DNA of 8,367 nucleotides from Acidobacteriota bacterium (GTDB taxonomy: Bacteria; Acidobacteriota; Terriglobia; Terriglobales; SCQP01). Position numbers and translations under genes: made by a program. Where the stretch lies: positions 1-8,367 of the forward strand of contig JAKAOE010000050.1 in assembly GCA_021823305.1 (NCBI GenBank), in the 5' to 3' direction. The notes under the pieces were generated by a model. That model saw only the letters and a list, made by a program, of their open reading frames with translations. It was not told the DNA's origin and did no database searches. The first letter of the stretch is position 1. Each line of letters starts with the position of its first letter. Positions 1 to 8,367 of the stretch are shown in pieces.

Positions 1-108
1 TCCGATCTTGCGATGACGGCGCTGGACAACGGGGCGCGGGAGATCTGGACGCACGATCGCGGCTTTGCGGCGGTGACGGGGTTGAAGGTGGTGTTTCCGC
101 TGGACTGA
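1..108 (+). CDS. VapC-like PIN-domain toxin, C-terminal end (partial)
   Basis: Frame 1 is open from the window edge to a TGA at 106-108 and gives 35 residues. The visible part contains D-L-A-M-T-A-L, then G-A-R-E-I-W-T-H-D-R-G-F. This matches the C-terminal half of VapC-type PIN ribonucleases, where an Asp in the 'DaLiaAtAl' helix and the Asp of 'T-x-D-x-x-F' belong to the metal-binding acidic cluster. The protein would be the RNase toxin of a type II toxin-antitoxin pair, with its VapB antitoxin expected upstream outside the window. It lies 71 bp before the tRNA gene, so it belongs to the chromosomal flank and not to the integrated element. The assignment rests on a short C-terminal fragment. 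Confidence 0.72.
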   Translation, partial: SDLAMTALDNGAREIWTHDRGFAAVTGLKVVFPLD

Positions 109-179: not shown

Positions 180-257
180 GGGCGCGTAGCTCAGTTGGAC
201 CAGAGCATCGGCCTTCTAAGCCGACGGTCGCAGGTTCGAATCCTGCCGCGCCCGCCA
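180..257 (+). tRNA. tRNA-Arg (anticodon UCU), CCA encoded
   Basis: A full cloverleaf can be drawn. The acceptor stem is GGGCGCG (180-186) with CGCGCCC (247-253). The D stem is GCTC/GAGC (189-192, 203-206). The anticodon stem is TCGGC/GCCGA (208-212, 220-224) around the loop CTTCTAA (213-219), with anticodon TCT at 215-217. A 5-base variable loop follows at 225-229, and the T stem-loop is GCAGG-TTCGAAT-CCTGC (230-246). The discriminator is G254 and CCA is encoded at 255-257. The tRNA reads AGA/AGG, which are rare codons in a GC-rich genome. Its 3' portion from the first anticodon-loop base onward is duplicated at 6380-6424, so it serves as the element's integration site and stays intact after insertion. 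Confidence 0.97.
213..257 (+). repeat. attL core: 3' half of tRNA-Arg, 45-bp direct repeat
   Basis: It is identical over 45 bp to 6380-6424. It begins exactly at the first base of the anticodon loop (tRNA position 32) and runs through the encoded CCA. The bases on either side differ between the two copies. This is the classic crossover segment of tyrosine integrases that use tRNA genes, where strand exchange usually falls in the anticodon stem-loop. The integrase stop codon lies 11 bp beyond this copy. Confidence 0.95.
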
Positions 258-267
258 ATGATTTCAA

Positions 268-1464
268 TCAGTTGGCGAGGTCAGCCGCTTTCGCTTCGGA
301 AAAGTTTGGGGGGAAGTTGGGGGACCCAGATGCAATTCCGGCGGCGGCCGGCCCGGCCCCCGCTTCCACCGCGGAACGCAAATCCTCCAGATCGAAATGG
401 CCGTACCGGGCGGCCATCAGCGCCATGGTGCTGGGCTTCCAGCCCAGTATCTTGGCCACCTTGGGGAGCGGGACGCCGGCATCCATCATCCGGCTGGCGG
501 CGGTGTGGCGGAGGTCATGAAACCGGCATGCCACCCCCGCGCGTTTCTTGGCCGCTTCCCAAGCCTCTTTGATCTCGCCCACGGGCTGCGTGGGATCGGT
601 TGCGTAGGCGCAACCGGCTGCAAAGGCGGCGTCCCCGCGCGCGCCCTGAGGCCCGCGACGGCCGGCGCCGCCAATCCGCATACGCGGAAAGACGTAATGG
701 CCGGGCTGGCGTCTGGGGAACTGCGCCGCCCAGTGTTCCAAGACCGTGGCGGCGCGTTCGGTGAGGGGCACGATGCGGCCGGAGCCGGCTTCGGTTTTGT
801 CGTGCCCCCATTTGACGGCGCGGGCCTTGAAGTCAACCTGGCCCCACGTCAGCGTGCGAATCGTACCGAACCGGGCGCCGGTGGCCAGCGCCAGAACCAC
901 GAAGGGCAGCAGCGCCGGGGAGCGGGACTCACCGGCGGCGCGGAGCAGCGCCTCCTGCTCGGGCGGAGAAAGCTTGCGTCCCTTGCCGTTGTGATCCTCG
1001 GGGAACAGCGTCACATCCTCCTGGATCAGCGCCCAGCGCCGAGCTTTTTTGAGCACGGATCGAAGCGTGCCAATCTCCATGTTGATGGTGCGCCTGGACG
1101 CCTTTTGATCGAGCCGCTGCTGCTGGTAACGGTGGATGTCCGCCGCTTCGATGTCGCACGCGAGTTGGCCTCCGAACACCGGCAGCAGATGCCCAAGGTG
1201 GCGGCGGTGAATTTCCAGCGTGGAGGCCGTCCACTTCGGCGCCCGCTGTGTGATCCAATCCTCAGCGGCCACGGAAACGAGCTTCGGGCGCGCTTGGCGA
1301 CGCACTCCCGCCGCCGCTTCCTCCAACCCGCGCCGGCGCGCCGCCTCGATCCGCTTTGCCAGCGTCCGGCTGCTGGTGTGCGTGGACTCGCGGATGCGCT
1401 GCGCGGCGAAAACGAAGTCCATCCAGAAAATCTTGCCGCGCCCGGTTGGCCTGTAGACCGCCAT
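268..1464 (-). CDS. int: Tyrosine recombinase/integrase
   Basis: This 398-aa site-specific recombinase of the phage-integrase family would insert and excise the element at tRNA-Arg. An N-terminal arm-binding region is followed by a core-binding SAM-like domain (about 60-155) and the catalytic domain (about 165-360). Visible catalytic residues are R198 in T-G-A-R, K223 in the beta-hairpin, H316-x-x-R319 in H-D-L-R-H, W342 in I-L-G-W-K replacing the usual second His, and the nucleophile Y354 in A-R-Y-G-H-F. A Gly/Arg-rich insert lies at about 262-285. The ATG at 1464 is chosen because AAAGGAGG lies just upstream with good spacing; the same frame stays open to 1656, but that extension overlaps a better small ORF. 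The C-terminal tail (G-S-P-N-F-P-P-N, 380-387) is encoded by a 25-bp sequence repeated near attR. The gene is convergent with the tRNA and follows the 51-aa ORF after one base. Confidence 0.96.
   Translation of the reverse strand: MAVYRPTGRGKIFWMDFVFAAQRIRESTHTSSRTLAKRIEAARRRGLEEAAAGVRRQARPKLVSVAAEDWITQRAPKWTASTLEIHRRHLGHLLPVFGGQLACDIEAADIHRYQQQRLDQKASRRTINMEIGTLRSVLKKARRWALIQEDVTLFPEDHNGKGRKLSPPEQEALLRAAGESRSPALLPFVVLALATGARFGTIRTLTWGQVDFKARAVKWGHDKTEAGSGRIVPLTERAATVLEHWAAQFPRRQPGHYVFPRMRIGGAGRRGPQGARGDAAFAAGCAYATDPTQPVGEIKEAWEAAKKRAGVACRFHDLRHTAASRMMDAGVPLPKVAKILGWKPSTMALMAARYGHFDLEDLRSAVEAGAGPAAAGIASGSPNFPPNFSEAKAADLAN
304..328. repeat. 25-bp inner repeat, copy A (candidate arm-type site)
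   Basis: It is identical over 25 bp to 6225-6249 and in the same orientation. It lies inside the integrase 3' end, 46 bp from the attL core. Internally it holds two related G-rich blocks, TTTGGGGGGAA and TTGGGGGA. Location and copy number suggest an integrase arm-binding site; descent of copy B from a second integrase gene is the alternative. Confidence 0.75.
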
Positions 1465-1465
1465 T

Positions 1466-1621
1466 TCACGCCTCCTTTTTCGTCTTGCGCGGCCGGCCGC
1501 CGAGCTTGCCGTACTCGCTCTGGCGGCGCAGGTACTCGGCCTCGCCCCACTGCGCGATTCGCGCCCGCACGCTGCGCTTCCCCAGCAGGCTTGCCGCTTC
1601 GCTTGCCTTTTTGCTTGCCAT
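1466..1621 (-). CDS. Small basic 51-aa protein upstream of integrase
   Basis: ATG at 1621 opens a 51-codon frame ending with TGA at 1468-1466, one base before the integrase ATG. The integrase Shine-Dalgarno sequence lies inside its last codons, so translation of the two is probably coupled. The product is Lys/Arg/Ala-rich: it starts M-A-S-K-K-A-S-E-A-A, has a likely central helix (I-A-Q-W-G-E-A-E-Y-L-R-R-Q-S-E-Y), and ends L-G-G-R-P-R-K-T-K-K-E-A. 'GGRPRK' tails occur in small uncharacterised proteins of mobile elements. A strong promoter places the predicted transcript start at or within a base of this ATG, and no Shine-Dalgarno site precedes it, so initiation may be leaderless. Function is unknown; nucleic-acid binding or integrase regulation is only a guess from charge and position. 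Confidence 0.72.
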   Translation of the reverse strand: MASKKASEAASLLGKRSVRARIAQWGEAEYLRRQSEYGKLGGRPRKTKKEA

Positions 1622-1627
1622 TCAGCT

Positions 1628-1656
1628 AATTTACCCAACGTTGGGTAAACTGTCAA
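1628..1656 (-). promoter_or_regulatory. Promoter of the small ORF-integrase operon
   Basis: On the minus strand TTGACA (1656-1651) is a perfect -35 box. A 17-bp spacer leads to TAAATT (1633-1628), a four-of-six match to the -10 consensus. The predicted start is about 1621, the A of the downstream ATG. Nearly all of the spacer and most of the -10 lie in the 20-bp palindrome at 1630-1649, so a bound repressor would block RNA polymerase. Confidence 0.85.
1630..1649. promoter_or_regulatory. 20-bp perfect palindrome, candidate operator of the divergent promoters
   Basis: TTTACCCAACGTTGGGTAAA is a perfect inverted repeat centred between 1639 and 1640. It fills the spacer of the leftward integrase promoter and would overlap the -35 region of any promoter firing right toward the replication operon. 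A dimeric repressor here could switch integration and replication together. No repressor is recognisable in the element; the 198-aa protein, the AlpA-like protein or the 51-aa protein are candidates, as is a host or helper factor. Confidence 0.75.
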
Positions 1657-1660
1657 CTGG

Positions 1661-1666
1661 TAGGAT
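1661..1666 (+). promoter_or_regulatory. Possible -10 box of the rightward operon
   Basis: TAGGAT is the best -10 candidate before the rightward operon. No good -35 lies at 17 bp: the segment at 1638-1643 reads ACGTTG and is inside the palindrome. If real, this is a weak promoter that may need an activator, with a start near 1673. An ATG at 1674 opens a 23-codon frame ending with TGA at 1743-1745, across both leader hairpins and just before the ribosome site of the 198-aa gene. It could be a leader peptide, but this is weakly supported. Confidence 0.3.
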
Positions 1667-1682
1667 TAACCCGATGCGGCAG

Positions 1683-1704
1683 GCCCGCGCCGACGGGCGC
1701 GGGC
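1683..1704 (+). other. Leader hairpin 1 (9-bp GC stem)
   Basis: GCCCGCGCC (1683-1691) pairs perfectly with GGCGCGGGC (1696-1704) around the tetraloop GACG. Only TTAA follows instead of a U-tract, so it is at best a weak terminator. With the next hairpin it forms a structured leader before the 198-aa gene and could act as an attenuator or RNA-stability element. Confidence 0.6.
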
Positions 1705-1708
1705 TTAA

Positions 1709-1732
1709 GGGTCGGGTCCCCTTACCCGGCCC
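1709..1732 (+). other. Leader hairpin 2 (9-bp stem)
   Basis: GGGTCGGGT (1709-1717) pairs with ACCCGGCCC (1724-1732) with one G-U wobble, around the loop CCCCTT. A short CTTC/GAAG helix (1737-1740, 1744-1747) follows directly and would cover the start of the Shine-Dalgarno sequence AAGGGGG of the next gene. Base pairing is seen directly; a regulatory role is inferred. Confidence 0.55.
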
Positions 1733-1756
1733 GCCGCTTCGCTGAAGGGGGCGAGC

Positions 1757-2353
1757 GTGCCGGATGACGGTGAGGCGTTCCTGGTTGCCTACTGCGCACG
1801 GCTCAAGCGCGAATTGGGCGCATGCAGGCGCCTGGCGGAAATCTTCGACGACTACGCAGGCGGTAACGGCGCGAGGCTGGCCATGGGCTTACTTTTCACG
1901 ACTACGTGGGGAGAGGTACAGCTGAAGTCCAAACTGGGGCCGGATCAGTCCGCCGGGATGCGCAGTCGAAAGCTTGCGCGCCAGCAGCTCAAACGACAGC
2001 CGTGGTTTTCGGGGCATTTTCCCATTGAATGGGAACTATTTCCCAAGGGGACGCCCGCCAAAATGCGCGCTTGGATTGCCAAGCACCACCTTGCTGGGCG
2101 GCCGGAGTATCCCGACTCTCCAAGGTGGCTGAAAGAGCTGGGCGGGATCAAGGCGCGCCGGCCCGGCCAATACAACACGGGCTTTCGGCCAATCTGCATT
2201 AAGGACTTGGCCGCCAGCATCGAAGAATGGACCGGCAAAGCCCCTGGGTCGGTAAGGTTCACCGAACTGTTAAACGCTGCAAATCGGGCCGCCGGGTATC
2301 ACCAGCCGCTGGGGGCGCCGAACGTTAGGCGCATGCTGCGTGCCCGAAAATGA
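1757..2353 (+). CDS. Hypothetical protein, 198 aa, first gene of the rightward operon
   Basis: GTG at 1757 follows AAGGGGG with a 5-base spacing. I do not recognise the family. The N-terminal third (1-45) is predicted helical (A-Y-C-A-R-L-K-R-E-L, then R-R-L-A-E-I-F-D-D-Y). The middle is basic and rich in Trp and Pro (W83, W92, W106, W124). The C-terminus (about 165-198) reads like a small helix-turn-helix (F-T-E-L-L-N-A-A-N-R-A-A-G-Y, then N-V-R-R-M-L-R-A-R-K). No signal peptide or membrane segment is visible. Base composition is less GC-rich than the downstream genes, suggesting a different origin. It is the first gene right of the operator and lies 51 bp before the AlpA-like gene. A control role is plausible from position, but unproven. 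Confidence 0.75.
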   Translation: MPDDGEAFLVAYCARLKRELGACRRLAEIFDDYAGGNGARLAMGLLFTTTWGEVQLKSKLGPDQSAGMRSRKLARQQLKRQPWFSGHFPIEWELFPKGTPAKMRAWIAKHHLAGRPEYPDSPRWLKELGGIKARRPGQYNTGFRPICIKDLAASIEEWTGKAPGSVRFTELLNAANRAAGYHQPLGAPNVRRMLRARK

Positions 2354-2383
2354 CAATACCGGCGCGGCATCAAACGCGCGATA

Positions 2384-2415
2384 ACGGTAGGCGAGGACCG
2401 ATTCGTGCCTACCGT
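2384..2415 (+). promoter_or_regulatory. 9-bp inverted repeat around the AlpA-like gene's ribosome site
   Basis: ACGGTAGGC (2384-2392) is the exact inverse of GCCTACCGT (2407-2415), with a 14-bp spacer. The Shine-Dalgarno GAGGA (2393-2397) lies in the loop and the GTG start (2405-2407) reaches the 3' arm. As RNA this hairpin would limit initiation of the AlpA-like gene; as DNA it could be an operator or Xis-type binding site. Confidence 0.6.
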
Positions 2416-2665
2416 GAGCCATTTCAACACCCCACCCAAGCGTAATGCCGCCTGCCCCGACCCCGAAGGCGCGCGGCAGCTCATGCCGATCCCGCACGTA
2501 GCCGCCGCCCTGGCCGTGTCGCCAGCGACCATCCGCGAATGGGTTTGGCGCCGCCGCTGCCCCGTTGTGCGCGTTGGCCGCGCCGTGCGCATCCCCGCCG
2601 CTTGGGTGAGGGATTACGTCGCTCGGCGCACCACCCCGGCGCTGCCGGAGCGCGAGGCGAAGTGA
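2405..2665 (+). CDS. AlpA/excisionase-like winged helix-turn-helix protein
   Basis: This 86-aa protein has a MerR/HTH_17-type DNA-binding fold. The HTH spans about residues 27-48 (M-P-I-P-H-V-A-A-A-L-A-V-S, then P-A-T-I-R-E-W-V). A wing follows (C-P-V-V-R-V-G-R-A-V-R-I-P at 52-64) and then an anchoring helix (W-V-R-D-Y-V-A-R). In satellites and prophages this small family supplies recombination directionality factors and AlpA-type activators of excision, which fits an element with an integrase. GTG at 2405 is preferred because GAGGA lies 7 bases upstream; the internal ATG at 2483 has no good ribosome site and would leave only the HTH. Its TGA overlaps the next gene's GTG. Family assignment is firm; excisionase versus transcriptional regulator is open. 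Confidence 0.85.
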   Translation: MPTVSHFNTPPKRNAACPDPEGARQLMPIPHVAAALAVSPATIREWVWRRRCPVVRVGRAVRIPAAWVRDYVARRTTPALPEREAK

Positions 2666-3105
2666 CGCCTGCCGACGTGGCCGACCGTCTCCACGCGCGC
2701 CCCACCGGCCCCGGCCGGTGGATGGCTCGCTGCCCGGCCCACGCGGACAGCAGCCCGAGCCTGAGCATCCGCGAAGGCGACGGCGGGCGGCTGCTCCTGC
2801 ACTGCTTTGCCGGCTGCGCCACCGCCAATGTGCTGCGCGCCGCCGGCCTCACTTGGCGTGACATCTGCGGCGTGCCCACCACGCCCGCCGACCGCGCCCG
2901 GCTCGCGCGCGATCGCACCACGCGACAGGCGGCCGACACCGCGCAGCGCCGGCGCGAGCGGGCGCGGACGGATGCGCTGCGCCACGCCGACGCCACCCTG
3001 GCCAGCCTAGCCGCGGCGGCGATGGCCGACGGCGGCGACGCGGCGGCGCGCGAGTACCACCGCCTGTTGCACGCCACCCGCCATGCGGAGGTGCCCACGT
3101 GGTGA
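2662..3105 (+). CDS. Primase-type CHC2 zinc-ribbon protein without catalytic domain
   Basis: GTG at 2662 shares GTGA with the stop of the AlpA-like gene and has GAGG four bases upstream; the product is 147 aa. Residues 20-52 match the zinc-ribbon of phage and satellite primases: C24-x2-H27, then D-S-S-P-S-L-S-I, then L-L-L-H-C48-F-A-G-C52. The zinc module recognises template DNA and steers primer synthesis. In relatives it is usually fused to a Toprim domain and often a helicase. Here only an Arg/Ala-rich helical tail (about 75-147) follows, with no Toprim motif, and none occurs in the next gene. It may be an accessory that recruits host primase to the element's helicase. The gene overlaps the helicase gene at its 3' end. 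Zinc-ribbon call is confident; the mechanism is inferred. Confidence 0.85.
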   Translation: MTPADVADRLHARPTGPGRWMARCPAHADSSPSLSIREGDGGRLLLHCFAGCATANVLRAAGLTWRDICGVPTTPADRARLARDRTTRQAADTAQRRRERARTDALRHADATLASLAAAAMADGGDAAAREYHRLLHATRHAEVPTW

Positions 3106-4325
3106 CGGCGGCCGATCTGGGATTCTCCGCGACCGATGATCCGGTTGCCGCGCTGCGCGCGGAGCTGAAGCGCGCCAACGAGCTGCTGGGCATCGCGCCG
3201 CCGCCAGCCGCGGGCTTCGCCCCAGTGCCAATTGGCGATCTGCTGCACAAGCACTATGCACCCGACGATTACCTGTGGGCCGGCCGGCTGGTACGCGGAA
3301 CCGTTTCGATGGTGGCGGCAAAACCGAAGGTGGGCAAGTCCACCTTCGCGCGGAACTTGGCGCTGGCAGTTGCCCGCGGTGAGCCGTTCCTGGGCGGCGC
3401 AACCAAACAGGGCGACGTGATTTATCTCGCCTTGGAGGAGCGTGAGCAGGAAGTGGCGGGAACGTTCCGGGCGCTGGGCGCGACCGGGACGGAGCCGCTG
3501 CACGTCCACGCCGCGCCCACCCCGGAGGCCGGCATCTTTGCGCTGGCGGACATGGTGCGCGCGCGCAAGCCGGCGCTGGTGATCGTGGACCCGGTTTTCA
3601 GACTGGCGCGGATTCGCGACGAAAAGGCTTACGGCGAGGTTTACGCCGCGTTGGGGCCGCTGATTGATCTGGCGCGCGAGGTCGGCGCGCACGTCATGCT
3701 GCTCCATCATTCGGGCAAGAGCGCCCGTTCGGATGCAATAGACGCGCCGCTGGGCAGCACGGCCCTGGCCGGCGCGGTGGCGACGCTGCTGGTGATGAAG
3801 CGCACGGAAGCCTATCGCACGCTCCAGAGCGTGCAGCGAGCCGGCCCGGACATGCCGGAAACGGTGCTCAGCTTCGATCCGGCGACCATGGCGCTAGGCT
3901 TGGCTGGAACGAAGACCGACGCCGACCGCCAAACTTCGGAAGGCGACATTCTGGGGTTTTTGGCCGAATCGGCCGAGCCGCAAACCCAAGCCCAAATTCG
4001 GGAGGCGGTGGAGGGTCAGACGCGGTTGGTGCGCGCCGCGCTGACCGCCTTGGTGACCGCCGGGAAGGTCGCCCGAACCGGCGATGGAACCCGGGGCAAA
4101 CCGTTCCTTTACATAGCCCGAAACGGATTCCCGAATACTGGTTCCCAGCATATAGCGGGAACCAGAAAACCAAAATCACAAAAAGCGGGTTTCGACCGCA
4201 TAAACACTGGCTCTATTCTGGTTCCCGGTTTTGAGCAAAAACCGATTCTGGTTCCCGGAACCGAAAGCGCCGAAAATGCCGCCCCGGCAGCCACCCAAAG
4301 CGCCCTGTGGGAGGGCAAGCTATGA
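3099..4325 (+). CDS. RepA-like RecA-fold replicative helicase (AAA_25)
   Basis: This 408-aa ATPase resembles the hexameric RepA helicase of RSF1010-type plasmids and satellite replication proteins; it would unwind the element's origin using ATP. Walker A is A-K-P-K-V-G-K-S-T (74-82), the likely catalytic acidic motif is L-A-L-E-E (110-114), Walker B is A-L-V-I-V-D-P (159-165), and L-L-H-H-S-G-K-S (201-208) is the typical motif 3. A winged-helix segment follows at about 284-340 (I-L-G-F-L-A-E through A-G-K-V-A-R-T). The final 65 residues are low complexity and contain I-L-V-P-G twice, because this DNA carries iteron-like repeats. Two tandem GTG starts exist: 3099 lies 7 bases from GGAGG, while 3102 would give the GTGA overlap seen elsewhere in the operon. 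Confidence 0.93.
   Translation: MVTAADLGFSATDDPVAALRAELKRANELLGIAPPPAAGFAPVPIGDLLHKHYAPDDYLWAGRLVRGTVSMVAAKPKVGKSTFARNLALAVARGEPFLGGATKQGDVIYLALEEREQEVAGTFRALGATGTEPLHVHAAPTPEAGIFALADMVRARKPALVIVDPVFRLARIRDEKAYGEVYAALGPLIDLAREVGAHVMLLHHSGKSARSDAIDAPLGSTALAGAVATLLVMKRTEAYRTLQSVQRAGPDMPETVLSFDPATMALGLAGTKTDADRQTSEGDILGFLAESAEPQTQAQIREAVEGQTRLVRAALTALVTAGKVARTGDGTRGKPFLYIARNGFPNTGSQHIAGTRKPKSQKAGFDRINTGSILVPGFEQKPILVPGTESAENAAPAATQSALWEGKL
4138..4262. repeat. Iteron-like repeat cluster, candidate replication origin
   Basis: CTGGTTCCC occurs at 4138-4146, 4218-4226 and 4248-4256, and inverted (GGGAACCAG) at 4157-4165. Copies three and four extend to an exact 14-bp repeat, ATTCTGGTTCCCGG, whose starts are 30 bp apart. 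Copies one and two form an inverted pair around 10 bp, and the fourth copy continues into GGAACC. An AT-rich run (4166-4183) lies between the pairs and could melt easily. Copy one is in a different codon phase from copies three and four, so the repeat is conserved as DNA and not as protein. Repeats plus an AT-rich tract beside a replicative helicase gene are the hallmark of an iteron origin. Confidence 0.7.
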
Positions 4326-4816
4326 CCGCGTTGGAGGTGCTGCGCGAGGTGCAGGCGGCCGGCGGCAGCCTCACCCCGCTGGAGGATGGGTTGAGAATTC
4401 GGATGCCCGCCGCCCCGCCGGCACGGCTGCTGGATGCCATCCGTGAGCGCAAGCAAGACCTGCTGGCCCTGCTCCATCGCCCGGACGCCTGCCCGGAGTG
4501 CTCGGGGATGTACTGGTGGCAGGATTCGGTGGGGCTGTGGCGCTGCGGCACGTGCGAGCCGGACCCGCGGGCCGCCCGGATGCGCGGTGTTACCCTGGCG
4601 ATCCTGGGTGACCGCGCCTTCTGCACCACGCCGCCGACTGGCGATCTTCCGCAGCCCGGCAGTTGGGCCAGGACGCCCGCCGGCGCGTTCGCGGAACTGG
4701 TGCTCTATCGTGCGGATGGCGGCGAGGTGCTGGTGCGCACCCTGAAGGGCGAGCGCCTGCTGTGGCATCGCCCCGAGGATCTGGTTGGGGAGGAAGCTTG
4801 GGGGTGGGGAGCATGA
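4322..4816 (+). CDS. TubC-N-like docking domain plus zinc-ribbon protein
   Basis: ATG at 4322 overlaps the helicase stop as ATGA and is preceded by GGAGGG; the product is 164 aa. Residues 1-52 resemble the TubC N-terminal docking-domain fold: helix A-L-E-V-L-R-E-V-Q-A-A-G, strands around L-T-P-L-E-D-G-L-R-I-R-M-P, then helix L-L-D-A-I-R-E-R-K-Q-D-L-L-A-L-L. From memory, proteins of this type are often found beside replication genes of phage satellites, where no toxin-synthesis role applies. A four-Cys zinc ribbon follows (C57-x2-C60, C75-x2-C78), then a beta-rich segment (about 122-150). Four-base coupling to the helicase suggests a replication or protein-protein role. Function is unproven. 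Confidence 0.8.
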   Translation: MTALEVLREVQAAGGSLTPLEDGLRIRMPAAPPARLLDAIRERKQDLLALLHRPDACPECSGMYWWQDSVGLWRCGTCEPDPRAARMRGVTLAILGDRAFCTTPPTGDLPQPGSWARTPAGAFAELVLYRADGGEVLVRTLKGERLLWHRPEDLVGEEAWGWGA

Positions 4817-5136
4817 TCCCCGCGGCTGATCCGCTGGGCAGGGGCGTGGCATATGTACCGGGCGCCAGCGGGCTGAACGACCCGCCGAAGAAACGCCCAT
4901 GGAGCCGCTGCAATCCCGACGCGTCGGCAAATCCGGCCACGGCGGGGCTGGTAGGCAACGAGTTTTTCAGGGCTGCGGCGCGGCTTGGTGGGAAAGCACG
5001 CTGGGCGTCGGTTGGGCCAGCCGAGCGCAGCGAGCGCATGCGCAGCGTCGCCCTGGCTCGGTGGCATCCCGGCGGCCATCAGACGCCCATGCAGCGGGCA
5101 GTCCGCGAGGCGCTGCGGAGACTGGCAGCCGAGTAG
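4813..5136 (+). CDS. Hypothetical 107-aa protein with GGKAR...RSE...ARW motif
   Basis: ATG at 4813 overlaps the previous stop as ATGA, continuing the coupled operon; upstream GGGGA is a modest ribosome site. The first half is Pro/Gly-rich and probably disordered. The second half contains R-L-G-G-K-A-R-W-A-S, then A-E-R-S-E-R-M-R-S-V-A-L-A-R-W (about 57-84), and ends in a basic helix (M-Q-R-A-V-R-E-A-L-R-R-L). The pattern 'GGKARAxxxxPEERSExxRxAAxARW' recurs in small proteins of many bacteria and their mobile elements, but its function is not established. No Cys pairs or membrane segments are seen. It is the last gene of the rightward operon. Confidence 0.72.
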   Translation: MIPAADPLGRGVAYVPGASGLNDPPKKRPWSRCNPDASANPATAGLVGNEFFRAAARLGGKARWASVGPAERSERMRSVALARWHPGGHQTPMQRAVREALRRLAAE

Positions 5137-5216
5137 CTGCCCGGCCCGCGCGTCGCTGTGTGTGTCGCTGCCCTGGCTGGGCGCTGGGCGGGACTTGCCC
5201 GGTGCTATTCGTCGCT

Positions 5217-5972
5217 TCACCCCAGCGAATTGTAGCTGACGTTTAAATATCGGCTCGTGATCGTGCATGGGTCGTTCTCATCCACCGTCCAGCCGCCCTT
5301 GCGTAACTCGGTCATCCACCGCTTGTTCCTCCAAGAGAATAGGCTGAAGACGCGGGTTGGCTCTTCCCGTTCCCGAAGATGATCAGGCAGGTAGCCGGAG
5401 GGGAGGACGCGCAGAACCACCGCCTGCCATCCGTATCCAGCGCCGGTTAGGGTCTTGGGGATTTCAGGGGCAAACCGCCCCGATTGAGCCGGCCACCAGT
5501 CGTCCCCGGCCCTCACGCCGAAAACGAGGCCCCTGTTGCGCGATTCGAAAAAAAAGTGCGGTCCGGGCCAGCCGGGACGGCCGCCGGGCAGCGCGCCAGC
5601 AAAGCCCAGCCTTGTGGAGTAATACGCGGTGCTCTCGGCGGAGGAGTGGGCGGAACAGGCGAACGCGCCGGGGGTGAGGGCGGTGAACGTGAAACTGTTG
5701 AACGCGGGCTCGTTGCCGAGCGCGGCCTGGTCGGCGGAGCCGAAGTCGTCGCGTAGAGCCTCCAAGTTCACCCACACCTTGACCACATAGGGCTTGAACT
5801 CCGCGAGCGCGAAGAGCCAAAGCAGCCCGAACCCGACATAGGTGAAACCGAGTCCAAGCAGCGATGACGGCGCCCACGCCAGTTGCCCTGCGCTGTGCAG
5901 AAGCACGGTGACCGAGGCGCCAACCGCGAGCAAGCCGAAAAGGTGTAGCTCCCTGATCGGTACTTGTGTCAC
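5217..5972 (-). CDS. Two-TM membrane protein of unknown function, probable cargo gene
   Basis: GTG at 5972 is chosen because GGAGGT (5984-5979) lies six bases upstream, giving 251 aa; the frame stays open to 6098 without a better start. Two hydrophobic segments lie near the N-terminus (about 11-27 and 37-57), separated by a short loop. A long soluble region (about 65-251) follows, rich in aromatic residues (D-D-W-W at 157-160, G-Y-G-W-Q at 179-183, W214, W219, W228). I do not recognise the family, and no nuclease, nucleotidyltransferase or protease motif is clear. It is the only gene of the element's right half on the minus strand and stands alone between the replication operon and attR, the usual place for accessory genes such as anti-phage or superinfection functions. 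That role is inferred from position only. Confidence 0.78.
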   Translation of the reverse strand: MTQVPIRELHLFGLLAVGASVTVLLHSAGQLAWAPSSLLGLGFTYVGFGLLWLFALAEFKPYVVKVWVNLEALRDDFGSADQAALGNEPAFNSFTFTALTPGAFACSAHSSAESTAYYSTRLGFAGALPGGRPGWPGPHFFFESRNRGLVFGVRAGDDWWPAQSGRFAPEIPKTLTGAGYGWQAVVLRVLPSGYLPDHLREREEPTRVFSLFSWRNKRWMTELRKGGWTVDENDPCTITSRYLNVSYNSLG

Positions 5973-6034
5973 GTCGCTACCTCCGAGCGGCCGTTGTTTC
6001 TGGGCTTGCCTTTGGGCGTGGCGCTGCCCTCCAT
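5969..6034 (-). CDS. Possible 21-aa leader ORF of the membrane protein
   Basis: ATG at 6034 opens a 21-codon frame (M-E-G-S-A-T-P-K-G-K, ending S-E-V-A-T) whose TGA overlaps the membrane-protein GTG as GTGA, the same junction type used throughout this element. It has no Shine-Dalgarno site. A weak TATGCT -10 (6045-6040) would place a transcript start about at its ATG. It may be a leaderless coupling peptide or pure chance; the peptide has no recognisable family. Confidence 0.3.
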   Translation of the reverse strand: MEGSATPKGKPRNNGRSEVAT

Positions 6035-6039
6035 CGGCG

Positions 6040-6070
6040 AGCATACACCAGCGAGCTTGGATTGGTGCAA
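6040..6070 (-). promoter_or_regulatory. Weak candidate promoter for the membrane protein gene
   Basis: On the minus strand TTGCAC (6070-6065) and TATGCT (6045-6040) resemble -35 and -10 boxes, but the 19-bp spacer is longer than ideal. Transcription would start near 6033, about 60 bases before the GTG at 5972. Confidence 0.35.
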
Positions 6071-6224
6071 CAGTGCGCGCGCAGCGCGCGCGCGGCAAGC
6101 GGCGGCGCCAAACGGGGGCGGTACGGCGACTTGTACGCGCGGGCGAGGCATGCAGATTGCGGCTGGCCTTCGGGCGTTTTCGCGCGGTACGCGAACGCGC
6201 GAGTCACGCAAAGGCGCGCCGGCG

Positions 6225-6249
6225 AGTTTGGGGGGAAGTTGGGGGACCC
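6225..6249. repeat. 25-bp inner repeat, copy B (candidate arm-type site)
   Basis: It is identical over 25 bp to 304-328, in direct orientation, but here in non-coding DNA 130 bp inside attR. In the excised circle this copy and copy A would flank the 45-bp core, as expected for integrase arm sites. Confidence 0.75.
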
Positions 6250-6379
6250 CTGGCAGAAAGCGGCAGTTTTCGGTAGCGGCCGCATGAGCGGCAGAATCGC
6301 GCGTGAGCCCGCGCCAGGCCTGCTATTCTCTGCTTTTGGGTGCTGCCGGCTGCGATGGCGAAAATGAGCGTCGTCGGAA

Positions 6380-6424
6380 CTTCTAAGCCGACGGTCGCAG
6401 GTTCGAATCCTGCCGCGCCCGCCA
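6380..6424 (+). repeat. attR core: truncated tRNA-Arg 3' half
   Basis: This is the second perfect copy of the 45-bp core, from the anticodon loop to the encoded CCA. The upstream acceptor, D-arm and 5' anticodon-stem sequence is missing, so it is a tRNA fragment and cannot make tRNA. It marks the junction between the element's right end and the chromosome, which resumes at 6425. Confidence 0.95.
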
Positions 6425-6565
6425 GCAGGATGTGGCTCGGCCGCCCTTTGTCCAGACCGCCGTTCCCGTGGCCGGGCTGCGGCCGTACTTCGATCCCCGG
6501 CAGCGAGCGCCCGCTGGCACCCGGGCGTCGCCAAGTTGCCGCGTATGGGGTTCGGCCCCTTATTC

Positions 6566-6594: not shown

Positions 6595-6600
6595 GCGGTT

Positions 6601-6951
6601 GTGGTGCTCATCCGGTTCTTGGGCGATGCGCAGCGACGCCTCCGGGCGTTCCCGGCGGAGGCTCGGCTGGATGCGGGATTTCAATTGTGGAAGGTGCAGT
6701 GCGGCGAGCCGCCGGACGATTTCAAGCCCATGCCCTCGATAGGCCGGGGAGTGGAGGAAATCCGGGTACGGGCGGTATCCGGAACATTCCGGGTTGTGTA
6801 CTTGGCGCGGCGGGCGGAGGCGGTGTACGTTCTGCACGCCTTCGCCAAGAAGACGCGGGCTACCGCGCAGCGGGATATCGAGTTGGCGCGGAAGCGGTTG
6901 AATGAGTTGACAGGGGGCAGGCATGAAGAAGCAGACCAAAACGTTTCGTAG
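6601..6951 (+). CDS. higB: HigB/RelE-type (phage Gp49-like) toxin
   Basis: This 116-aa protein belongs to the Gp49-like branch of the RelE/HigB superfamily, ribosome-dependent mRNA interferases. Family signatures are F-L-G-D-A-Q-R-R-L-R-A-F-P (6-18), D-A-G-F-Q-L-W-K-V-Q (24-33), D-D-F-K-P-M-P-S-I-G-R-G-V-E-E-I-R-V (39-56), G-T-F-R-V-V-Y (61-67) and Y-V-L-H-A-F-A-K-K-T (76-85). GTG at 6601 or 6604 fits the family's usual length; no clear Shine-Dalgarno site is visible and the promoter puts the transcript start at about 6601, so initiation may be leaderless. The frame extends upstream through attR, but that part is not toxin-like. The 3' end overlaps the antitoxin gene by 29 bases. It lies outside attR, so it is chromosomal. 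Confidence 0.93.
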   Translation: MVLIRFLGDAQRRLRAFPAEARLDAGFQLWKVQCGEPPDDFKPMPSIGRGVEEIRVRAVSGTFRVVYLARRAEAVYVLHAFAKKTRATAQRDIELARKRLNELTGGRHEEADQNVS

Positions 6952-7207
6952 CATTTGGGATGCCATCGCCGTCCGTCCCGGCGAGGCGGCGAACCTGCAA
7001 CTGCGGGCCGAACTCATGCAGCAGGTCGCGGCCATCGTGCGGTCGGCGGAGTGGACCCAAGCCGAAGCGGCCCGGCGCTGCGGTATATCCCAGCCGCGCA
7101 TGAACGACTTGCTGCGCGGGCGCATGTCCAGGTTCTCGCTCGATGCGCTGGTGAACATCGCCACGGCCTTGAAGCGCCGGGTAAAGCTGTCCGTCCACGC
7201 CGCCTAG
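6923..7207 (+). CDS. higA: HigA-type XRE/HTH antitoxin
   Basis: ATG at 6923 follows GGGGG at close spacing and starts inside the toxin gene. The 94-aa product has the typical layout of antitoxins paired with Gp49-like toxins: N-terminal F-R-S-I-W-D-A-I (8-15), helix A-A-N-L-Q-L-R-A-E-L-M (22-32), then an XRE HTH with W-T-Q-A-E-A-A-R-R-C-G-I-S-Q-P-R-M-N-D-L (44-63) and F-S-L-D-A-L-V-N-I-A (71-80). It should neutralise the toxin and repress the shared promoter through the ATATCC-AAAT-GGATAT site. Its TAG (7205-7207) abuts the probable IS end at 7208; its length looks normal for the family, so the gene is probably intact. Confidence 0.93.
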   Translation: MKKQTKTFRSIWDAIAVRPGEAANLQLRAELMQQVAAIVRSAEWTQAEAARRCGISQPRMNDLLRGRMSRFSLDALVNIATALKRRVKLSVHAA

Positions 7208-8367
7208 CCTGGATTATTCACGAAGGACCGGGCGGGGACGGATGGTGCGCTTCGGCTGGCGATGGTTGGCGGTGCGAGCGACTGGCGGTGGGGTTTGGGC
7301 GGGCGGCGGCGTGGCACGCTCGGGAATCGGGCAGGGCTCCGCCGCGACGGCGTTTGGTGGCGGGGTTGAGACAGCGGCGTCGGTTCAGGCTGAGCTGAAG
7401 CGCTGGCACAGGCGCGCGAAGTCGGCCTGGAAGGGCCAGCCTTCGGCGAAGGAGACGCGCACGCAGCGCGCGGTGCGTCGGACGCGCGCCGCCAGCTTGA
7501 AGACGCGGTTGCGCAGGGCCTCGATCTGCAAGGGCCGGAGCCGCGGCGGCAGGCGCAGGCGGAACAGGTTCACCAAGTTGTAGGCGGCGGCGTGCAGCAG
7601 CAGGCGGAACTGGTTGGCGGCGAAGCGGTGGCAGCTGAGCCGGTCGGCGGCGAAGCCGTTCTTCAGTTCCTCGATGCGGTTCTCGCACTCGCCGCGGTCG
7701 TTGTAAAAGCCGAAGCTCGCCTCCGGCGATAGGCCTTCGTTGCTCACCAGGAAACGCAGGTTCGCTCCGGCCGCGCCGTGCTCGGCCTTGTAGCACAGCC
7801 GCCGCGGGCCGGCCCAGCTGCGGGCCTGGTAGCGGAACTCGCCGTAGAGCCGTTGCGGATGCCCGCCCGCCTCGTAGGCCAGTTGGGCCGCTTCCTGCAG
7901 CCGGGCGGCCTGCCGGCGCAGCACCGGGTTGACCCCGATGCCGATGGCGTAGCCGACCCCCATCGCCTCGCAGAACTCGTACAACTCCGGCAGGGCGAAG
8001 CCCGCATCGGCGCGCAGCCGCACCCGCACCCCCGGGAAGGCCCGCCCCAGCCGCCGCAGCAGGCGCACCGCCCCCGCCCCCGACGCCGCCCGGCCCGGAC
8101 GCAGCCACAGCGCCAGCGCGAAACCGGTGTGGCGCTCCGTCACCCCCAGCGGGTGGTACATGGGCTGCCCGTAGCAGCCGTGAAAGAAGCTGAACTGCTG
8201 CTGCCCGTGCGTCGGGTCATCGGTGGAATCGATGTCGAGCAGAATCTCCCCGCGCCGCCGCACCCCCGCTGCGCACGTCCGGATGAACCACTCCACCAAC
8301 TCTCCCCTCATCGCCAGCAGTTCCCGCCGCCGCGCCCGGTTCTCCCACCGGCTCAGCGTCGGCTGCG
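7208..8367 (-). mobile_element. IS1380-family insertion sequence (one end and most of the transposase)
   Basis: The transposase is IS1380-type. Its downstream end is placed at 7208, where the sequence CCTGGATTATTCAC begins; IS1380-family inverted repeats commonly start with CCT. The other end lies beyond the window, so neither the matching inverted repeat nor the target duplication can be confirmed. Non-coding tail 7222-7384 shows no gene. Confidence 0.65.
7385..8367 (-). CDS. IS1380-family transposase (5' end outside window)
   Basis: An open frame enters from the window edge (first full codon at 8365) and stops with TGA at 7387-7385, giving 326 visible residues; about 100 or more N-terminal residues are expected beyond the edge. 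It is a DDE transposase that cuts and rejoins the IS ends. IS1380 signatures are the opening Q-P-T-L-S-R-W-E-N, then L-D-I-D-S-T-D-D-P-T-H-G-Q-Q (first catalytic Asp, about 8235), F-F-H-G-C-Y-G, R-A-D-A-G-F (second Asp, about 8008) and Y-N-D-R-G-E-C-E-N-R-I-E-E-L-K-N-G-F (Glu region, about 7670-7710), followed by A-A-N-Q-F-R-L-L-L-H-A-A-A-Y-N-L. No internal stop or frameshift is present in the visible part, so it may be functional. Confidence 0.92.
   Translation of the reverse strand, partial: QPTLSRWENRARRRELLAMRGELVEWFIRTCAAGVRRRGEILLDIDSTDDPTHGQQQFSFFHGCYGQPMYHPLGVTERHTGFALALWLRPGRAASGAGAVRLLRRLGRAFPGVRVRLRADAGFALPELYEFCEAMGVGYAIGIGVNPVLRRQAARLQEAAQLAYEAGGHPQRLYGEFRYQARSWAGPRRLCYKAEHGAAGANLRFLVSNEGLSPEASFGFYNDRGECENRIEELKNGFAADRLSCHRFAANQFRLLLHAAAYNLVNLFRLRLPPRLRPLQIEALRNRVFKLAARVRRTARCVRVSFAEGWPFQADFARLCQRFSSA

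What the first reader, a model, noticed from the sequence alone, without database searches (positions are those of the whole stretch)
213..6424. Complete 6.2-kb integrative element with no packaging or transfer genes
A perfect 45-bp repeat of the tRNA-Arg 3' half brackets an integrase, an AlpA-like factor, a replication module and a single cargo-like gene. Recognisable capsid, terminase, relaxase and conjugation genes are absent. This is near the lower size limit for a self-integrating, self-replicating element, and how it moves between cells is unexplained. Helper-phage packaging and simple integrative-plasmid behaviour are both possible.
Basis: partly seen in the sequence, partly recalled or inferred. 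Interest (0 to 1): 0.85.

Follow-up and report, generated by a model that had tools for sequence, protein, structure and literature searches.

The report
Minimal tRNA island with in-gene origin
A 6.2-kb piece of DNA sitting between two exact copies of half a bacterial tRNA gene carries genes predicted to cut it out and copy it, probably from a start site buried inside its own helicase gene, but no recognisable gene for moving between cells, so it likely travels inside some phage's particles.

Summary
An exact 45-bp repeat (213-257, 6380-6424) of the tRNA-Arg(UCU) 3' half brackets an intact tyrosine integrase, a small int-adjacent gene, an AlpA-like HTH, a zinc-ribbon protein, a RepA-type helicase and an orphan cargo gene. 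No relaxase, conjugation, capsid, portal or large-terminase gene was recognised.

Two further features suggest a working element. A 25-bp tandem repeat lies about 90 and 200 bp inside the two ends (likely integrase arm sites). The last ~150 nt of the helicase gene look like an origin: CTGGTTCCC repeats flank an AT-rich core, four exact copies there and none elsewhere in the window. In eight related genes, identical residues use identical codons 77% of the time there against 39% in the gene body. The repeats change together between elements, and AlphaFold leaves that protein tail disordered beyond a winged helix.

Thirteen of 59 related loci are likewise bounded by tRNA 3'-end repeats (3.3-12.8 kb). 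Gene order and size resemble PICMI/PICI satellites, and some small tailed viruses carry related helicases. Helper-phage transfer is the best guess, untested. 'Self-replicating' is too strong: no primase catalytic domain was found. The exact empty-site join was not seen. Verdict: new variant of a known kind.

The parts
180..257 (+). tRNA-Arg(TCT) gene; its 3' 45 bp (213-257) are the left copy of the att core
   Evidence: ARAGORN; Rfam; exact repeat
6380..6424 (+). right copy of the att core, a displaced tRNA 3' half
   Evidence: exact 45-bp repeat; flanks unrelated to the left copy
303..327 (+). likely left arm-type integrase site: 25 bp made of two ~12-bp direct repeats, inside the integrase C-terminal codons
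   Evidence: binding inferred
6225..6249 (+). likely right arm-type integrase site, identical 25 bp
   Evidence: binding inferred
268..1464 (-). tyrosine integrase, 398 aa
   Evidence: Phage_integrase 3.4e-22; phrog_1 6.5e-52; motifs
1466..1621 (-). 51-aa basic protein, one base from int; similar small genes sit beside related integrases
   Evidence: no family match
1630..1649 (.). 20-bp perfect palindrome between the hexamers of the only promoter-like site found in 1400-2700, reading into the 51-aa gene and int; possible operator
   Evidence: a palindrome of 20 bp or more in 22 of 1000 shuffles
1757..2353 (+). 198-aa near-orphan protein
   Evidence: one relative besides itself at E <= 0.001; no family match
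2405..2665 (+). AlpA-like HTH protein, likely excision or regulatory factor
   Evidence: HTH_17 1.3e-7; phrog_66 6.1e-8
2662..3105 (+). 147-aa zinc-ribbon protein; no primase catalytic domain recognised
   Evidence: Zn_ribbon_DnaG E 0.0022, below cut-off; phrog_6088 1.3e-14
3099..4325 (+). RepA-type AAA_25 helicase, 408 aa; winged helix at residues 272-340, tail 344-408 predicted disordered
   Evidence: model; best PDB match RSF1010 RepA 1nlf
4138..4256 (+). likely origin: iterons CTGGTTCCC at 4138-4146 (+), 4157-4165 (-), 4218-4226 (+), 4248-4256 (+) around AT-rich AGCATATAGC
   Evidence: origin function inferred
4322..4816 (+). 164-aa protein of unknown function, co-located with the helicase in related loci
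   Evidence: only weak Pfam matches
4813..5136 (+). 107-aa protein of unknown function
   Evidence: no family match
5217..6044 (-). cargo-like orphan, 275 aa (start uncertain; the database form is 251 aa)
   Evidence: only itself found; no family match

Best explanation
This is a tRNA-Arg-associated element bounded by an exact 45-bp repeat (6,167-bp unit) that likely excises with its integrase and AlpA-like factor, likely replicates from iterons inside the 3' end of its own helicase gene, and probably spreads inside helper-phage particles as PICMI satellites do. Shown: the repeat, the open genes, the paired tandem repeats inside both ends, and DNA-level conservation of a repeat array in the helicase tail whose copies change together between elements. 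Inferred: integrase and perhaps the 51-aa protein act at core and arm sites, with the AlpA-like protein favouring excision; the helicase's winged helix binds the iterons, the AT-rich core melts and the hexameric helicase loads; as no primase catalytic domain was recognised, host or helper primase would start synthesis; a helper phage would package the product without an element-encoded packaging gene. My odds by layer: integrated mobile element 0.97, in-gene origin 0.8, phage as vehicle 0.5.
For: Element: exact 45-bp tRNA 3' repeat, intact integrase, tRNA present without a second good core copy in the four same-genus genomes, 13 of 59 related loci bounded by tRNA 3' repeats. Arm sites: 25-bp tandem repeat near both ends; repeats of 22 bp or more in 5 of 14 bounded elements, with different sequences. 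Origin: four exact CTGGTTCC in the helicase tail and none elsewhere in 8,367 bp, 0.3 expected; 8-mer copies exceed synonymous-codon shuffles in 22 of 29 tails; codon identity 482 of 626 in the tail against 1943 of 4955 in the body; paired arm cells 199 of 240 against at most 180 in 2000 partner shuffles; tail disordered after a winged helix; tail G+C 0.49 against 0.67. Vehicle: PICMI115 has a similar size and core genes and no packaging-redirection homologue, yet is transduced (PMC10803314); three of four viral contigs tested with related helicases carry terminase, tape-measure or portal genes.
Against: The exact empty-site join was not seen. No circular form, packaging signal or helper is known. 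Seven of 29 tails lack significant 8-mer repeats, and the dyad itself beats shuffles at P<0.05 in only 16 of 29, the window at 0.043; an unbiased dyad scan gave perfect dyads in 17 of 54 genes. The pairing axis was fitted. Single-stranded folding of the tail is also strong (z -4.57), which a hairpin reading would predict too. Viral-collection matches reach only 27-40% identity, and phage records only weak distant ones. Five of 14 bounded elements show no clear end repeats.
Confidence: 0.58

Rival explanations
1. A conjugation hitcher: an integrative element carrying only a short oriT, mobilised by the relaxase of a co-resident conjugative element.
For: Such elements exist (passages of PMC11389934); an oriT can be too short to recognise; no packaging signal was seen either.
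Against: No relaxase or conjugation family in the window's 9 proteins. Plasmid records give only 17 weak matches to the helicase at E <= 1e-3, those listed 25-32% identical. Viral contigs with related helicases carry packaging genes. oriT itself was not searched for.
Confidence: 0.25
2. A simple integrative plasmid or island that moves only by chance (transformation, generalised transduction), with no dedicated vehicle.
For: No vehicle signal was found; close relatives are patchy and rare: 6 of 60 relatives at 1e-10, own genome included, 1 of 297 in the phylum at 1e-60, the own genome (at most 6 candidates scored per genome in the rows shown).
Against: Related elements recur at several tRNA genes in several phyla with kept integration and replication signals, which suggests repeated transfer.
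Confidence: 0.17
3. A decayed remnant of a prophage that has lost its structural genes.
For: Viral contig L064 has a related integrase and helicase plus terminase and tape-measure genes.
Against: The listed genes are open, the att core is perfect, and end and origin signals are intact; compact elements recur as tRNA-bounded units.
Confidence: 0.08
4. The repeat array in the helicase tail is a transcriptional hairpin or an operator, not an origin.
For: The stretch folds well as a single strand (z -4.57); the dyad alone could be a hairpin.
Against: Extra copies in direct orientation at +80 and +110 share each element's own motif, and three relatives keep spacing 0, 20, 28, 80, 110; no copies elsewhere in the window, where other operators might be expected; [quoted passage not shown]
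Confidence: 0.18

Closest known systems
PICMI (phage-inducible chromosomal minimalist islands of Vibrionaceae; PMC10803314: abstract, sections 7 and 10 and passages seen)
   Same: About 6 kb; integrase with an adjacent or overlapping small gene, AlpA-type regulator, primase-type replication gene; no packaging or capsid genes
   Different: PICMI sits at fis, this at tRNA-Arg; the helicase is RepA-type and has no recognised primase domain; helper phage shown there, not here
PICI / SaPI (PMC6092414 section 6 and passages; PMC7581432 passages)
   Same: Order int - regulator - replication initiator - origin - accessory genes; iteron sets flanking an AT-rich region
   Different: PICI origin lies immediately 3' of rep, here within the coding tail; no terS or capsid-morphogenesis gene recognised here
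P4-like satellites (recalled; PMC8628076 seen in a listing only)
   Same: AlpA-type factor and one protein serving in replication initiation and unwinding (recalled)
   Different: No P4-type capsid or transactivation genes recognised here; different helicase type (recalled)
Compost-derived tmRNA-site islands moved by jumbo phage (PMC12595487, abstract and start of introduction seen)
   Same: Tyrosine integrase, insertion beside an RNA gene, direct repeats, no recognised transfer genes
   Different: tmRNA site in Pseudomonas; phage transfer shown there
Lambda O gene and pSK41 rep gene origins (PMC7466680 and PMC5703833, passages seen)
   Same: Iterons inside the gene of the initiator that binds them
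   Different: There mid-gene in non-helicase initiators; here in the 3' end of a helicase gene, after a winged helix

Membership tests
tRNA-targeted integrative element | Tyrosine integrase beside a tRNA gene and a second copy of the tRNA 3' end at the far end | tested here: met
tRNA-targeted integrative element | Empty site joining at the core in a relative | tested here: inconclusive
   unoccupied tRNA in relatives, left flank similar in G002, right flank shared by none compared
PICMI | Co-located int, alpA and prim | tested here: inconclusive
   int and AlpA-like HTH present; zinc ribbon but no primase catalytic domain
PICMI | Integration next to fis | tested here: not met
   integrated at tRNA-Arg; fis hallmark per PMC10803314
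PICMI | Induced, packaged and transduced by a helper phage | not testable with these tools
   needs experiment
[quoted passage not shown]
   iterons flank an AT-rich core but within the gene's 3' end; function untested
PICI | Packaging or capsid-morphogenesis genes (present in some PICIs only) | tested here: not met
   none recognised in 9 proteins, apart from a weak HTH-level phrog_57 hit
P4-like satellite | P4-type capsid-size and transactivation genes (recalled) | tested here: not met
   no such family in Pfam or PHROGs scans
ICE / IME | Relaxase or conjugation genes | tested here: not met
   an oriT-only IME is not excluded, oriT not searched
Prophage | Capsid, portal, large terminase | tested here: not met

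The most novel reading that the evidence does not exclude
A family of satellite-like 'replicons without a vehicle', not described in the papers I searched, is spread across several bacterial phyla: integrases that use different tRNA genes, an initiator-helicase that swaps its primase front end (TOPRIM, Prim-Pol, NrS-1-like or none), and an origin written into the helicase's own coding tail with co-evolving iterons, moved by helper phages without a single packaging gene of its own.
Probability: 0.35. Interest if true: 0.75.

Novelty: new variant of a known kind. Interest (0 to 1): 0.52.

Why it matters
Well-studied minimal satellites come from a few cultured groups. A similar design seems to exist in Acidobacteriota and other poorly cultured phyla, with an origin that can be read from sequence because it leaves a codon-level footprint in a disordered protein tail. 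That footprint offers a sequence-only way to find this replicon type in metagenomes, and makes 'how do islands without transfer genes move?' testable by mapping particle-derived reads to a defined 6-kb circle.

Tried and rejected
Chance repeat: rejected (45 bp exact; the longest end-to-end match in 30 shuffles per element was 13 bp over 14 elements). A nested second element as source of the 25-bp end repeat: unlikely, since other elements show the same architecture with other sequences. Protein-level conservation as the cause of the helicase tail: rejected by codon identity and synonymous shuffles. Known plasmid or phage replicon: no match at 1e-15 in 72,556 plasmid and 50,697 phage records; at 1e-3, 17 plasmid and 151 phage records, the listed ones 25-34% identical. 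The genome-contig scan with the single protein found nothing; the alignment scan found 45 loci. Right-flank synteny led nowhere: the flank holds a dispersed repeat. Palindromes at the int promoter of other elements: none comparable. The structure of the 198-aa and cargo proteins was not tried for want of relatives.

Weak spots. Gene calls in relatives come from my own codon-usage caller. Alignments A2 and A3 hold 85 of its ORFs; integrases, primase-helicases and some small ORFs were left out, and for A3 only the first 25 of 28 Pfam, 60 PHROG and 28 PADLOC families were shown, so absences in distant relatives are incomplete. The motifs were picked by eye for 24 loci. L028 was dropped by hand. 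The eight genes and eleven tails were chosen by me from the closer relatives. Alignment A4 was made but not scanned. In one search at most 6 candidates per genome were scored in the rows shown.
Full report
What is there. The window is the start of an 8,970-bp contig of a fragmented assembly (471 contigs, 73% complete). A tRNA-Arg(TCT) gene lies at 180-257. Its 3' 45 bp recur exactly at 6380-6424, and the sequence around the two copies is unrelated. The integrase gene points at the intact tRNA and keeps the tyrosine-recombinase motifs. This is the usual attL/attR layout of an element whose attP carries the tRNA 3' half.

Gene set. On the minus strand: integrase (268-1464) and, one base away, a 51-aa basic protein (1466-1621). 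On the plus strand: a 198-aa near-orphan, an AlpA-like HTH, a 147-aa zinc-ribbon protein, a 408-aa AAA_25 helicase, a 164-aa and a 107-aa protein; from the HTH gene on, each gene overlaps the next by 4 or 7 nt. A 275-aa orphan on the minus strand closes the element; the search found only itself among the 7,996 candidates scored. Pfam and PHROGs give no capsid, portal, large-terminase, relaxase or conjugation family; the one packaging-labelled match is a weak one of the HTH protein to a small-terminase family (E 0.0068).

Ends. A 25-bp sequence made of two ~12-bp direct repeats occurs at 303-327, inside the integrase C-terminal codons, and at 6225-6249. Among 14 bounded elements (the window and 13 relatives), five have matched end repeats of 22 bp or more (window, L021, L042, L045, L046), four have 11-15 bp (L022, L026, L041, L057), and five have none or only 10-11 bp (L016, L027, L034, L054, L061); the longest match in shuffles was 13 bp. 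Window, L021 and L042 have different sequences at like positions (86-91 from the left end, 191-219 from the right). Arm-type integrase sites would look so; binding is inferred.

Site. In the same-genus genomes G001-G004 the tRNA is present (96-100% identical) and no second good copy of the core was listed; G004 (98% complete) shows the 45 bp exactly once (not every first-look candidate was scored). In G002 the DNA upstream of the tRNA resembles the window's left flank (101 nt at 76%, and 22 nt next to the tRNA at 95%), but no compared genome shares the right flank, so the exact join was not seen. In G009, of the same family, a 56%-identical integrase lies on the same contig as a 96% copy of the tRNA-Arg fragment, 316 nt past its stop.

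Likely origin. The helicase model has a RecA-like core (best PDB match RSF1010 RepA, 1nlf, E 3e-11), a winged helix at residues 272-340 with pLDDT mostly in the 80s, and a tail of 65 residues below 50. That tail is nonetheless conserved between proteins. The reason seems to lie in the DNA. CTGGTTCCC occurs at 4138, 4218 and 4248 on + and at 4157 on -, around AGCATATAGC, and nowhere else in the window. Of 56 helicase genes extracted in whole or part, 29 gave an anchored tail of 60 nt or more (L028 dropped by hand). In 22 of 29, an 8-mer recurs more often than in synonymous-codon shuffles (P <= 0.007); the seven that fail are L034, L041, L049, L050, L055, L064 and L067. The dyad alone beats shuffles at P < 0.05 in 16 of 29, the window at 0.043. 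A motif-free dyad scan found a perfect 8-bp dyad in 17 of 54 genes. Spacing recurs: 0, 20, 28, 80, 110 with orientation + - - + + in L021, L023 and L054; the window lacks an exact copy at 28. The motif differs between elements (CTTGTTCC, CTGGTTCG, CTTGTACG, CTCCACCA), and in the 24 of 32 tails with an AT core both arms tend to change together: 199 of 240 arm cells pair, against at most 180 in 2000 partner shuffles, with the caveat that the axis was fitted. In eight of the closer genes, identical residues use identical codons in 482 of 626 comparisons in the tail and 1943 of 4955 in the body. Tail G+C is 0.49 against 0.67 for the element. In E. coli PICIs two iteron sets flank an AT-rich region beside rep (PMC6092414, passages and section 6). 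Iterons inside an initiator gene are known from lambda O and pSK41 rep (passages). An origin is thus the best reading, and its place inside the gene is unusual but not without precedent.

Is it self-replicating? For ten bounded relatives I checked the front end of the same protein: six have a TOPRIM match (three above Pfam's cut-off), one has Prim-Pol with PriCT-1, one an NrS-1-type domain, and two no recognised catalytic domain (L054 with a weak zinc ribbon, L034 with none). The window has a zinc ribbon only. It therefore probably relies on host or helper primase.

The family. Of 59 related loci scanned for tRNAs (54, five regions), 13 are bounded by repeats of a tRNA 3' end: Cys, Asn, Phe, Ala, Gly (three), Glu, Lys and Arg (two each); spans 3.3-12.8 kb. 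Record titles of 12 of these name Acidobacteria or a group within them (seven), Methylomirabilota (two), Hydrogenedentota, Nitrospiraceae and Actinobacteria; one is unnamed. The unnamed host of the window is likely an acidobacterium too (inference). The nearest same-family relative, G006, has integrase, zinc ribbon, helicase and the 164-aa protein in the same order beside tRNA-Lys, but its contig ends before a second core. The family is patchy: 6 of 60 relatives at 1e-10, own genome included, and 1 of 297 genomes of the phylum at 1e-60, the own genome. In G009 a 63%-identical integrase with a similar small gene sits beside tRNA-Thr with another replication set (DnaB-like by eye), so modules seem to swap. 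Cargo of relatives includes FRG-domain, ApeA-like and other proteins with PADLOC matches.

How it moves. Two facts favour phages. First, PICMI115 is 6,110 bp, has int with an adjacent gene, alpA and prim, no packaging-redirection homologue, and is transduced as a concatemer (PMC10803314, sections 7 and 10 and passages). Second, viral contigs with related helicases carry packaging or tail genes: L064 (16 kb with 141-bp terminal repeat; large terminase, tape measure), L067 and L069 (portal); in L066 the two proteins scanned gave none, and the other five of nine contigs were not scanned. Two relatives carry a lone head-protease-like gene, though the one in L022 is Clp-like and may be ordinary. 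Against: no packaging signal is known here, and viral-collection matches reach only 27-40% identity. A conjugative helper acting on an unseen oriT remains possible (PMC11389934 passages).

Literature. Nine searches of the open library listed nothing that, by title and abstract, describes this element family or a RepA-type helicase with iterons in its tail; subscription papers and supplements are not covered.

Verdict. A real, apparently complete minimal element. By anatomy it works like a PICMI/PICI satellite, but it fails PICMI's fis-site hallmark and lacks recognised PICI packaging genes, so I do not file it as a member of either. New variant of a known kind.

Noticed in passing
window 6432-6544: Right flank just outside the element holds a ~110-bp dispersed repeat with many copies in the own genome, G002 and G004.
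   Followed up: partly
window 7385-8311: ORF of 308 aa that looks like an IS-type transposase (by eye, no family scan).
   Followed up: no
window 1-106 and about 6600-7207: Flanks look like toxin-antitoxin genes (vapC end; higBA-like), by eye only.
   Followed up: no
window 1630-1649: 20-bp perfect palindrome within the promoter-like site of the int operon; 22 of 1000 shuffles reach 20 bp.
   Followed up: partly
L030, L031, L053: Replication regions 87-90% identical in MAGs titled Deltaproteobacteria and Nitrospirae; L030 also holds an inverted second copy of the helicase region. Transfer or binning error.
   Followed up: no
L064:1-16029: Viral contig with 141-bp terminal repeat, integrase, related helicase, large terminase and tape measure: perhaps a small temperate phage with the same replication type.
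   Followed up: partly
alignment A5; window about 4199-4214: A second conserved block (CCCGCATAAACACT) between the two iteron groups, meaning unknown.
   Followed up: no
L034:11732-12133 and L022:12646-13392: Lone head-maturation-protease-like genes in bounded relatives; might act on a helper's capsid, or be ordinary proteases.
   Followed up: partly
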